This document shows positions 53,276-56,784 of a stretch of 64,000 nt of DNA, one piece after another. Within the stretch, counting starts at the first letter, position 1. Each line of letters starts with the position of its first letter. The notes beneath the pieces are model-generated. The model had not been told where the DNA came from. It did not search any database and was given only the letters and a program-made list of their open reading frames with translations. The DNA is taken from positions 265,827 to 329,826 of the forward strand of contig NW_001799588.1 in NCBI RefSeq assembly GCF_000165425.1, written 5' to 3'. Origin of the DNA: Paramecium tetraurelia (lineage: Eukaryota > Ciliophora > Oligohymenophorea > Peniculida > Parameciidae). The position numbers and the translations under genes are program-made.

Positions 53276-56200
53276 ATGTTTCAAGAAGTACTTTCATACG
53301 AATAAAATTTATCTGCTTCTTAAGATGTAACTCGATATGATCCCTAATAAATGATACCAAAGCAAGCCTTGATGAAAATAGTAAGTGCAGCATAGGATAG
53401 GCGGTTTGCTGAAGAAATTGATGAATTAGAAAAACTTTAGGGTATATCAAGTATAGAAAGTGGATTAAAAACCAATTTTACTTTTGGTCTAAAAGGAGAT
53501 GATTTTGAATAAAGAAACTTATAATATGGCGATAATTTAAAGCATTTTACTCTTCCTAATACCTATATGTAATTGCTTTTTCAAGCTTTAGAAGTTTAAA
53601 TTAGTATAATTATAGGATTGCATGATTCGAATATTATTAGGGGCTTCTATAGTTTCAATTGTCATAGGAGTTTTTACAGTAGATGATGATCATCGTTCAT
53701 TTGCTTGGATAGAAGGATTTGCTATATTTATGGCAGTATTGATATCTTGCAATGTGACAGCGATTAATGTATATAACAAATGAAAAGGTTAGGATTATTG
53801 GAAGTAAAGCCAATTCTAAAATTTACGTCAAATGGAAGAGATGAGAAGGACGGTAGTAGTTTGGAGAGACGGATGCAGGATGGATTTAAGTTATAGTTTG
53901 GTTATGGTTGGAGATATAATTTAAATTTGTGAAGGGATGGAAATTCCAGCAGATTGTATTGTAATAGAGGCAGCAGATTTGACGGTTGATGTATATTATT
54001 TATACTATGTAAAAGGAAAGTGAAATGACAGGTGAAACTATACCCATAAAAAAAGATACATATGATAATTGTATTAAGTAAAGAAATAAATTGAAGAATC
54101 GAAAGAGTAGGCTGAGCAAATATGATGTTCCATCTCCAGTTATGTTGGGTGGTACAAAAGTATTGTCAGGCGAAGGTAAAATGGTAGTAGCAGTGGTAGG
54201 TGAATCAAGTTCTATTGGTAAAATTTATTATTAGCTTACAACTTAAGAAGAAGAACCAACACCGTTATAACTTTAATTAGAAGAATTTGCTTTATAGATT
54301 AGGTAGTTTGGACTCATTAGTGCAGGTTTGATTTTATTTGTTTTTCTAATGAGATTTGGAATAGATAGAATTAAAGAAGGTTCATTTGAGAAAGAACATA
54401 TTAGGGAATTGGTGAATTTCTTTATAATTTCAATTACAGTGATTATCGTTGCAATACCAGAATGCTTACCACTAATTGTAACACTTAATTTGGCTTATTC
54501 TACGAAGAGAATGTTACAGGATAACAATCTAGTTAGAAAGTTGGCTGCCTGTGAAACTATGGGAAGAGTAGATATGGTATTAACTTGTAAGACTGGAATC
54601 TTAACACCGAATAAAATGTCTGTAGTCTAGTTGTGGAATGAAGAATTGATGGATATTGATGCATATAAGGAGAGATTAAATTTAAGCACATACTTACCAG
54701 CTCATATGCATGAATTGTTTATTTAATCAGCCATAGTAAATGGAACACCAGTAATTAGAGGAGAAGGATAAGGAAATAAAACAGAAGTAGCAATGCTCTT
54801 GTTTGCAGAACAATTTGGCATAAATTATGAAAAGGAAAGAAATACACATCTAGCAACCAAGAAGATTCCTTTTTCGAGTAGGAGGAAAAGGATGTCCACG
54901 ATTATTGGAGACAAAAGATTAGTTATTAAGGGAGCTGGTGAAATCATTCTAGAAGGGTGTAATAAATTACATTCTAAATCAAAGGGGATTATACCTATCG
55001 ATTCTTCCATTAGAACTAGTATCGAATTGGCCATACAATAAATGGCTTCTTAGGGTCTAAGCACTATAGCATTAGCCTACAAAGATATTAAAGGCAATTA
55101 GGATCTTGAAAAAATAAATGAAAATGGAGTTTATCAAATAGAAACTGTAGATCTTACTTTGATTGCTATAGTTGGAATTAAAGATATTCTAAGAGCTGAA
55201 GTACCACTAGGCATTGCTGCTTGTAAAACTGCTGGAATCAAAGTAAGAATGATTACAGGAGATAATAAATTAACTGCTTTAGCGATTGCTAAAGAATGTG
55301 GTATATTAATTGATGAGAATCAATCCCTAGTTTTAGAAGGGGCAGATTTTTTAAATAGAATTGGAGGATTAGTCTGTAAATAGTGTCAAACATCAAAATG
55401 TGATTGTCCAAGAGATCAAAAAAGTGCCTATTAATTAGACAAATAAATAAGAGTTGATACAATTAAATATGGGGCAGAATTTGATAAGATTTATCCTTTC
55501 TTAGATGTTTTAGCTAGAAGTAGATCTGAAGATAAGTACGCACTTCTAGTAGGTTTATAAGAAAGAGGATATGTTGTAGCAGTAACTGGAGATGGAACCA
55601 GTGATGGTAAATTGTTCATCATATTATTTTATTAGTCCCTATTTTAAAGAAGGCTGATGTGGGTTTTGTTATGGGAATAGGAGGAACTGAAGTAGCGAGG
55701 TAAAGTGCCTCTATTGTTTTGCTGGATGATAATTTTAATTCCATTTTAAAAGCAGCCCTATGGGGAAGAAACATATATGATTCAATTAAGAAATTTTTAC
55801 AATTTCAATTGACAGTCAATATTGCAATTTCAGTCTTGACGCTTTTGTCTGTAATTGTAATCAAACAAGCTGTGCTAGAGCCTATCTAAATGCTTTGGAT
55901 TAATCTGATAATGAATACATTTGCATAACTAGCTCTGGTCACAGAATCTCCAACCCCAGAGTTATTAAAGAGAAACCCTCAGAACATAAATGAAGACATG
56001 ATATCCCCCAAGATGTTTAAAAATATTTTAGGATAAGCAATTTATCAAATGGTTGTAATAATGGTACTAATATTTTATGGGTAAACATTCATTCCAGAGT
56101 TTAAGGGAGAAGAAGATGAATCAATAGTATTTAAAGGTAAGTTATAATACAAATATTCCAACACATACTTCGATGAAACTAATAACCTTCACATCTGTCC

Positions 56201-56784
56201 TAATTATACGGATTATTGTAATCTGATATCTTTCAATACAGATTATTACATTGATGGATCAGAAAACTACCAAAGCTTTTATAAAGAGACATATATACCT
56301 TCAAGATAGTTTACAGTTATCTTCAATACTTTTGTAATAATGCAATTATTCAATTTTATTAATGCCAGAAGAGTAAGAAATGAAATAAATATCTTCAAAG
56401 GAATATTAAGCAATACGTTCTTCCTTACTACAGTTTTTGGTATTCTTGCTTTATAATTAATAATTGTTACTTTTGGTGGAATAGGATTCCACTGCTATTC
56501 ATTTTATGGACTCAATATAGAACAGTGGTATTTAATTGTATTCATATAGGTTAATTTGTCTAACCTTTGGTGTTGGAAGTTTAGTTGTAAGACTAATACT
56601 CAGAGTAATTCCAGACCCGAAAAATCGAAGTCTTACTAGACCTGATCAAATGAATAACAGTTAAAATCTAACATTTCCAACTGTTACTATGCACGATTAC
56701 AAATATTAGGTTTAATCACTTAGTCTAGAATCAGAATCAGAAAACGAAAACCTTAACAATCCAATTTAAGAGTATCAATCATGA
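53276..56784 (+). CDS. PMCA-type Ca2+-ATPase homologue with Cys in place of the catalytic Asp
   Basis: An intact 1,128-residue frame; introns at 53594-53615, 53769-53792, 53991-54015, 55607-55635 and 56528-56549. The plasma-membrane Ca2+-ATPase layout is complete: [54 protein letters not shown]4 [69 protein letters not shown] and [20 protein letters not shown]. Four landmark residues are changed. DKTGTLT reads CKTGILT (codon TGT at 54586-54588, residue 414), PEGLP reads PECLP, TGDGTND reads TGDGTSD, and TM6 LIMDT reads LIMNT. Without the Asp no phosphoenzyme can form, so classical pumping should be impossible. The C-terminal tail is short and acidic, with no clear calmodulin site. A regulatory pseudo-ATPase is my inference; a decaying duplicate is the alternative. 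Confidence 0.9.

What the first reader, a model, noticed from the sequence alone, without database searches (positions are those of the whole stretch)
53276..56784. Intact PMCA-like Ca2+-ATPase whose catalytic Asp is Cys (DKTGT changed to CKTGI)
The frame is perfect over 1,128 codons and six exons. The phosphorylated Asp is replaced by Cys (TGT at 54586-54588, two base changes from GAT), the hinge TGDGTND is TGDGTSD, PEGLP is PECLP, and the TM6 calcium-site motif LIMDT is LIMNT. Losing the acyl-phosphate residue while keeping the whole fold suggests a non-pumping pseudo-P-type ATPase with a scaffold or regulatory role, or a duplicate at the start of decay. I know of no described regulatory pseudo-PMCA in ciliates, but I could not search.
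Basis: partly seen in the sequence, partly recalled or inferred. Interest (0 to 1): 0.8.

Follow-up and report, generated by a model that had tools for sequence, protein, structure and literature searches.

The report
Paramecium calcium pump lacking catalytic residue
A full-length Paramecium calcium-pump gene has lost the one amino acid such pumps need to work, yet two species share the loss and the protein is still being preserved, which suggests a second, non-pumping job.

Summary
Window 53276-56784 (+) is an intact six-exon, 1,128-codon PMCA-type gene of Paramecium tetraurelia whose phosphorylated Asp is Cys (codon 414, TGT 54586-54588). It is not a sequencing error: the P. octaurelia orthologue has the same CKTGI, while 117 of the 120 listed homologues have DKTGT. 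The gene is a genome-duplication twin of a DKTGT gene on another contig, with the same neighbours. Differences between the two species avoid conserved sites (11 of 179, against 88 of 364 at variable sites), and an indirect calibration gives dN/dS near 0.2. So it is not simply decaying, though it changes five times faster than a true pump, and P. tetraurelia has also lost a calcium ligand. Best reading: a young pseudo-pump with a non-pumping role (role inferred, untested); slow decay is the main rival. A census of 96 P-type loci found a stronger case outside the window: a twin pair derived from Na/K-type pumps with the main catalytic motifs gone, yet dN/dS 0.058.

The parts
53276..53593 (+). 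exon 1 (start ATG 53276)
   Evidence: protein identical to P0001
53616..53768 (+). exon 2
53793..53990 (+). exon 3
53991..54015 (+). intron 3, 25 nt, ends AAG instead of TAG; the same AAG end is in the C207 duplicate
54016..55606 (+). exon 4 (TGE actuator motif, TM4 motif, phosphorylation site, N domain, hinge)
   Evidence: motifs
54028..54036 (+). TGE of the actuator loop, kept (codons 228-230)
54457..54471 (+). TM4 motif PECLP (canonical PEGLP): Glu kept, Gly to Cys; P. octaurelia has PEGLP
54586..54588 (+). codon 414, TGT = Cys in place of the phosphorylated Asp
55060..55062 (+). codon 572, Ser in place of the conserved Arg of the LRTI motif of the N domain (Ile in P. octaurelia)
55585..55605 (+). 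hinge TGDGTSD (canonical TGDGTND; P. octaurelia TGDGTGD)
55636..56527 (+). exon 5 (TM5 and following membrane helices, by the model)
   Evidence: helices
55914..55916 (+). codon 847, Asn in place of the TM6 Asp (LIMNT); P. octaurelia keeps Asp
56550..56784 (+). exon 6 and TGA stop

Best explanation
A young pseudo-P-type ATPase. A PMCA-type (P2B) gene duplicated in a Paramecium whole-genome duplication lost its ATP-driven cycle (Asp414 to Cys with Thr418 to Ile, the LRTI Arg572, the hinge Asn752) before P. tetraurelia and P. octaurelia split, while its membrane body and cytoplasmic domains stayed under purifying selection. Shown: sequence, shared loss, duplicate origin, continued constraint. 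Established knowledge (recalled): without the Asp no aspartyl-phosphate can form, so it cannot pump by the known cycle. Inferred, not shown: the retained body does a non-pumping job, most likely occupying a PMCA place in membrane assemblies such as the ciliary CaV-PMCA association reported for other Paramecium PMCAs, where a partner that cannot pump would tune calcium removal by competition or act as a structural subunit.
For: CKTGI in two species' assemblies, 82-83% identical over the full length. Duplicate origin: the SmD1-like gene upstream (100% over 62 aa) and the P-loop gene downstream (90-96% in three pieces) also flank the C207 copy; tree 100/100 for (P0001,P0002) beside (P0004,(P0005,P0006)). 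By parsimony the tet/oct differences postdate the shared Cys: 11 of 179 at sites conserved in at least 95% of 33 canonical rows against 88 of 364 at sites under 40% (Fisher p 6e-8), with near-equal mutational opportunity per site (2.13 and 2.06). A canonical tet/oct PMCA pair with 37 of 1,093 differences and omega 0.038 puts dS near 0.37; the window pair, 196 of 1,128, then gives omega about 0.2, while neutrality at dS 0.4 would give about 56% differences. Omega 1 on the window branch loses 11.7 lnL units. PMCA profile TIGR01517 807.5 bits, cut-off 507. Asp-less P-type proteins are demonstrably kept in this genome: pseudo-P2C pair, omega 0.058. CaV-PMCA association: PMC4588038 passage, citing a personal communication.
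Against: Protein change is about five times that of a canonical PMCA between the same two species (17.4% against 3.4%). Conserved sites still change (11 of 179, against 0 of 179 in a canonical pair), and the DKTGT-bearing twin shows the same pattern (12 of 179), so nothing marks this gene out as better kept than its twin. The twins' synonymous distance is uneven: 1.62 for this gene pair but 0.59 for its flanking genes on 224 codons and about 1.0 for two canonical pairs; if 0.6-1.0 is the true dS, the dN of 0.28 means omega 0.28-0.47 rather than 0.17. Likewise the tet/oct omega would be 0.8 if dS were only 0.1. The two species do not keep the same remnants (P. tetraurelia lost the TM6 Asp and the TM4 Gly). 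No orthologue of this copy appears for P. pentaurelia or P. primaurelia among the 120 listed hits, so it is lost there or hidden in a 90% cluster. No expression or functional evidence; the assembly role is a guess by analogy, and I do not know which numbered PMCA this is.
Confidence: 0.57

Rival explanations
1. Slow decay: a redundant whole-genome duplicate that lost catalysis and is drifting towards loss; the present constraint is residual, for instance selection only against misfolded or toxic membrane protein, or dosage constraint.
For: Threefold raised omega in both duplicates (0.18 and 0.22 against 0.064), higher still if the flanking-gene dS is taken; continuing loss of ion-site residues in P. 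tetraurelia; the P. octaurelia C207 duplicate has also lost both hinge Asp residues and the DKYA Lys (TGEGTNV, SRPEDMY); no orthologue listed for P. pentaurelia or P. primaurelia.
Against: Omega well under 1 in every fit except the extreme dS assumption of 0.1 (0.8); fourfold avoidance of conserved sites; one in-frame 6-nt indel and no frame break between two species.
Confidence: 0.31
2. Still an enzyme or transporter: Cys414 serves as an alternative nucleophile (a thiophosphate intermediate), or the protein is a passive calcium path that no longer needs ATP.
For: The rest of the motif (KTG, LT), TGET, TGDN and KGA are kept, and P. octaurelia keeps Glu in PEGLP and Asn/Asp in TM6.
Against: The LRTI Arg and hinge Asn are lost with the Asp in both species; P. 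tetraurelia lost the TM6 Asp; the HAD hydrolase profile PF00702 falls just under its cut-off (25.9 against 26.4 bits; P. sonneborni P0003 scores 54.9, but P0002 scores 26.5 and the DKTGI twin P0006 26.0). Recalled: Asp substitutions in SERCA and Na,K-ATPase abolish phosphorylation.
Confidence: 0.06
3. Sequencing or assembly artefact.
For: This assembly does hold possible 1-nt errors elsewhere: the canonical copies L013 and L014 have frame breaks, mostly beside short homopolymer runs.
Against: Two base changes in one codon, shared with P. octaurelia; frame intact throughout; identical protein in public records.
Confidence: 0.01

Closest known systems
PMCA / P2B calcium ATPases (mouse PMCA 9gsf, human PMCA1 6a69)
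   Same: Best profile (TIGR01517), best fold matches (9gsf_A E 1.6e-69, 36% identity), same order of Pfam domains, TGE and KGA motifs kept.
   Different: Phosphorylated Asp is Cys, LRTI Arg is Ser or Ile, hinge Asn is Ser or Gly; TM6 Asp lost in P. tetraurelia.
DKTGT point variants in a 2014 survey of P-type ATPases (PMC3896382; passages read)
   Same: Full P-type proteins with a changed DKTGT; [quoted passage not shown]
   Different: There called possible sequencing errors or non-functional or highly specialised; its supplementary table could not be opened, so this gene may be among them. Here the loss is shared by two species with evidence of selection.
Degenerate P4-ATPase-like domain of Plasmodium guanylate cyclase beta (PMC6592433 passages)
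   Different: A P4-type domain fused to a cyclase; here a free-standing P2B protein.
Human TMEM94 (PMC12134183 passages; PMC13322241 seen only as a listing with the start of its abstract)
   Same: P-type-like protein argued not to run the phosphorylation cycle.
   Different: The proposed Asp D417 is present and TGES is absent; its status is disputed, since the other paper calls it the ER Mg2+ ATPase.
Paramecium pseudo-P2C pair found here (L106 on C197, L027 minus strand on C207)
   Same: Asp-less P-type protein kept in the same genome.
   Different: Related to Na/K-type pumps, DKTGT, PEGL, TGES and hinge motifs all lost, loss shared by both twins, omega 0.058.

Membership tests
Functional PMCA (P2B Ca2+-ATPase) | Sequence and fold of the PMCA family | tested here: met
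   TIGR01517 807.5 bits against cut-off 507; AlphaFold2 model mean pLDDT 78, best PDB match PMCA 9gsf_A
Functional PMCA (P2B Ca2+-ATPase) | Phosphorylated Asp in DKTGT | tested here: not met
   CKTGI in both species
Functional PMCA (P2B Ca2+-ATPase) | Calcium ligands Glu (TM4), Asn and Asp (TM6) | tested here: not met
   P. tetraurelia: Glu and Asn kept, Asp847 is Asn; P. octaurelia keeps all three. Ligand roles recalled.
Functional PMCA (P2B Ca2+-ATPase) | TGE(S/T) dephosphorylation loop | tested here: met
   TGET in both species
Functional PMCA (P2B Ca2+-ATPase) | Calmodulin-binding autoinhibitory tail | not tested
   Residues 1076-1128 are low-confidence in the model; no motif search done
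Functional PMCA (P2B Ca2+-ATPase) | ATP-driven calcium transport | not testable with these tools
   needs expression and assay
Pseudoenzyme (P-type pseudo-ATPase) | Loss of an essential catalytic residue with the fold kept | tested here: met
   the model's alignment largely dictates its fold
Pseudoenzyme (P-type pseudo-ATPase) | Maintained by selection after the loss | tested here: met
   Site test free of calibration and an indirect dS calibration; no direct tet/oct codon comparison was possible
Pseudoenzyme (P-type pseudo-ATPase) | Expressed, with a non-catalytic function | not testable with these tools
   no transcript, proteome or phenotype source at hand
Whole-genome-duplication ohnologue | Conserved neighbours on both sides of the duplicate | tested here: met
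Decaying pseudogene | Broken frame, or omega near 1 | tested here: not met
   intact frame in two species; branch omega 0.18, omega 1 rejected by 11.7 lnL units; see the Against line for the dS uncertainty

The most novel reading that the evidence does not exclude
Paramecium has turned P-type pumps into non-pumping membrane proteins more than once: an old pair derived from Na/K-type pumps that lost its catalytic motifs before its twins parted and is now as constrained as true pumps, and the young PMCA-derived protein of this window, caught early, with the catalytic site gone in the ancestor and the calcium site only now going in one species. Pseudo-P-type ATPases would be a real protein class with conserved roles, probably as partners of ion channels or active pumps in the ciliate membrane.
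Probability: 0.5. Interest if true: 0.82.

Novelty: new variant of a known kind. Interest (0 to 1): 0.62.

Why it matters
P-type ATPases are defined by the phosphorylated Asp, and pseudoenzymes of this superfamily seem hardly described: a 2023 review of pseudoenzymes has no occurrence of ATPase, P-type, transporter or pump in its main text (PMC10211241, term search), and six phrases for inactive P-type pumps match no paper of the held library, which lacks most subscription journals. A young case with a DKTGT duplicate and an orthologue in a sister species lets one ask in what order a pump loses its parts and what is kept. Paramecium genes can be silenced by feeding (recalled), so a role is directly testable, and the old pseudo-P2C pair is a ready positive case.

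Tried and rejected
Frame intactness as proof was set aside: table 6 has one stop and long chance frames are common. The AAG end of intron 3 as a broken splice site was rejected: the duplicate has it too. A genome-wide DNA pattern led nowhere: it gave 45 matches against 38 for its reversed control and, as I saw later, was not the window's own codon choice. The idea that the two duplicates split the pump (one losing catalysis, the other the ion site) is suggestive only: P-domain against TM4-6 changes 10:2 and 9:9, Fisher p 0.12. A direct tet/oct dN/dS could not be done because I had no P. octaurelia DNA; it was replaced by the site test and a protein calibration. A published tet/oct dS was sought (searches; passages of PMC10195154, PMC8354472, PMC11334263) and not found; PMC8354472 names a table S6 that could not be opened. 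Window against L014 and L009 against L014 dS (4.3 and 4.5) look saturated and are not used. A second structure model (pseudo-P2C) had mean pLDDT 65 and is not leaned on.

Full report
WHAT IS THERE. The window is Paramecium tetraurelia macronuclear DNA: its protein at 53276-56784 is identical to a public P. tetraurelia record (P0001). Reading table 6 and removing five short introns gives 1,128 codons in six exons. Intron 3 ends in AAG, and so does intron 3 of the duplicate gene, so the splice signal is inherited, not damaged. An open frame is weak evidence under a one-stop code (a 334-aa antisense frame covers part of the same gene); the better evidence for integrity is alignment to the P. octaurelia protein from end to end with a single two-residue indel.

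THE CYS IS REAL AND SHARED. A protein search gave 985 relatives at E 0.001 or better, of which 120 were listed. Among these 120, 117 carry DKTGT, one DKTGI (a P. octaurelia paralogue, P0006) and two CKTGI: this gene and P. octaurelia P0002. P0002 is 82-83% identical over its full length. Both also share I for T in KTGT, V, I and V for three Ala at or after the hinge, and have lost the Arg of the LRTI motif and the hinge Asn. Private to P. tetraurelia are PEGLP to PECLP and the TM6 Asp to Asn; P. octaurelia keeps PEGLP and LIIDT. So catalysis-linked residues went first, by parsimony in the common ancestor, and ion-site residues are going in one species only.

ORIGIN. The gene has a twin on contig C207 (L009, protein P0005) with the SmD1-like gene upstream (100% over 62 aa) and the P-loop gene downstream (96%, 90% and 93% in three pieces) on either side; it is a whole-genome-duplication pair. 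A 16-row tree places (P0001,P0002) with 100/100 support beside (P0004 of P. pentaurelia, (P0005,P0006)), and both beside a slow canonical group (P. sonneborni P0003 and the P. tetraurelia copies L013 and L014). The twin keeps DKTGT but has PDSFP for PEGLP and HGG for KGA, and the P. octaurelia twin has also lost both hinge Asp residues and the DKYA Lys, so it may be dead by another route.

SELECTION. (a) Site test, free of calibration: with conservation taken from 33 canonical rows (38 rows aligned, chosen by me from the 120 listed, less the five fast ones), P0001 and P0002 differ at 11 of 179 sites conserved in at least 95% and at 88 of 364 sites conserved under 40% (p 6e-8). The bins between are not strictly graded: 35 of 228, 29 of 141, 17 of 131. 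Mutational opportunity per site is near equal (2.13 and 2.06). The control pair P0013/P0015 (canonical, P. octaurelia and P. pentaurelia) differs at 0 of 179 and 33 of 361; the twins P0005/P0006 at 12 of 179 and 77 of 363. So constraint persists but is leaky, and no tighter than in the DKTGT-bearing twin. (b) Codon models on P. tetraurelia DNA: window against C207 twin dS 1.62, dN 0.28, omega 0.173 (bootstrap 0.127-0.211); canonical twins L013/L014 omega 0.066, dS 0.99; L034/L036 omega 0.038, dS 1.02; flanking genes omega 0.066, dS 0.59 on 224 codons. These pairs should be of one age if all stem from the same duplication, so dS is uncertain; with dS 0.6-1.0 the window pair would have omega 0.28-0.47. 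A four-gene branch model (1,125 codon columns) gives 0.183 for the window branch, 0.22 for its twin, 0.064 for canonical copies and 0.042 for the inner branch, whose dS of 1.8 is high; giving both twins one omega costs only 0.17 log units, fixing the window branch at 1 costs 11.7. The window branch includes time before the Cys. (c) Protein calibration of the tet/oct interval: a canonical pair (L034 and P0014) differs at 37 of 1,093 residues, which with omega 0.038 implies dS about 0.37; the window pair, 196 of 1,128, then has omega about 0.2 (0.27 at dS 0.3, 0.8 if dS were only 0.1), and neutral drift at dS 0.4 would give 56% differences. Genome-wide, aurelia ohnologues average Ka/Ks 0.05 (PMC10195154, passages). 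Verdict: constrained, about five times looser than a true pump, not neutral.

WHAT WAS LOST AND KEPT. Of 15 highly conserved sites changed in both species, 10 lie in P-domain core windows holding 67 of 179 such sites (p 0.023); I set these windows after seeing the list of changes, so the p-value is only indicative. TGET, TGDN and KGA remain. The AlphaFold2 model (mean pLDDT 78; the alignment largely dictates the fold) matches PMCA structures best (9gsf_A, E 1.6e-69). The HAD hydrolase profile drops just under its cut-off (25.9 against 26.4 bits; P0002 26.5, P0006 26.0, P0005 52.7, P. sonneborni 54.9), while the PMCA profile TIGR01517 stays far above its own.

OTHER ASP-LESS PUMPS IN THE GENOME. 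The PF00122 scan, whose counts are lower bounds, gave 117 hits, which I merged into 96 loci. I looked for the phosphorylation site in fetched stretches of all 96. DKTGT is in 89 (85 by the first pattern, 3 by a looser one, 1 after refetching a mis-cut stretch). The seven without intact DKTGT are the window gene, L106/L067, the minus-strand gene of L027, L107/L064, L015 (DQTSI), L104/L091 and L105/L095 (DKTCT). The first four of these lack the Asp itself. L106 and the minus-strand L027 gene are twins on C197 and C207, nearest to Na/K-type P2C proteins at 24-29% identity: DKTGT replaced by GLNEV, PEGLL by PVGLL, TGDGVND by TGEGLTD, the TGES loop gone. Of 117 sites conserved in at least 90% of 18 other P2-type rows (chosen by me from the 120 listed), 48 are changed in all three pseudo-P2C sequences compared. 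Yet the twins have omega 0.058 at dS 0.99 over 999 codons, and P. primaurelia (P0121) and P. octaurelia (P0122) have close relatives (77 of 1,028 and 50 of 1,004 differences to the nearer twin). The loss is shared by both twins, so by parsimony it predates the duplication, and selection since is about as strong as on canonical pumps.

HOW IT MOST LIKELY WORKS. Shown: no phosphorylatable Asp, constraint kept. Established (recalled): the P-type cycle needs the aspartyl phosphate; Asp substitutions abolish it. Inferred: the protein persists as a non-pumping membrane partner. The only physiological hook I found is a review statement, citing a personal communication, that ciliary CaV channels of Paramecium co-precipitate with PMCA18 and 19 and that silencing these prolongs backward swimming (PMC4588038, passages); I could not tell which numbered PMCA this gene is. 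A partner that occupies such a site without pumping could tune calcium removal. This last step is a hypothesis only.

NOVELTY. DKTGT point variants have been tabulated (PMC3896382, passages) and a degenerate ATPase domain is noted in Plasmodium GC-beta (PMC6592433, passages). Searches for pseudoenzyme or inactive P-type ATPases, with and without Paramecium, listed no described pseudo-PMCA or pseudo-P2C in ciliates; the held library lacks most subscription journals.

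Noticed in passing
L106 (G000:C197:166800-171000, minus strand) and L027 minus strand (G000:C207:185000-191900): Twin P2C-like pseudo-P-type ATPases with DKTGT, PEGL, TGES and hinge motifs lost; omega 0.058 over 999 codons; close relatives in P. primaurelia and P. octaurelia. A stronger case than the window gene.
   Followed up: partly
L107 (G000:C43:219000-223000, minus strand), also L064: A second, more distant Asp-less P2C-like gene (INKEAV in place of SDKTGT); whether its frame is intact was not resolved.
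   Followed up: partly
L015 (G000:C210:79000-84600, minus strand), beside canonical L013: PMCA-like gene with DQTSILTQN for DKTGTLTQN and CCDGENN at the hinge; L016 on C194, beside L014, looks like its twin and keeps DKTGT.
   Followed up: no
L104 (G000:C67:91000-94800) and L105 (G000:C218:251300-255000): Two similar P-type-like loci with SVIFDKTCT, the Gly of DKTG being Cys in both.
   Followed up: no
L013 (C210) and L014 (C194), minus strand: Both canonical PMCA copies most like P. sonneborni P0003 show 1-nt frame breaks in this assembly (two and one), mostly beside short homopolymer runs; sequencing errors or real, unresolved.
   Followed up: partly
P0006 (P. octaurelia protein): The octaurelia twin keeps Asp (DKTGI) but has TGEGTNV for TGDGTND and SRPEDMY for SRPEDKY, so both duplicates may be dead pumps in that species.
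   Followed up: partly
window 53276-56784 and L009: Synonymous distance of this gene pair (1.62) is much higher than that of its flanking genes (0.59, 224 codons), though all should share one duplication age.
   Followed up: no
window 53991-54015: Intron 3 ends AAG rather than TAG; the same end is kept in the C207 twin.
   Followed up: yes
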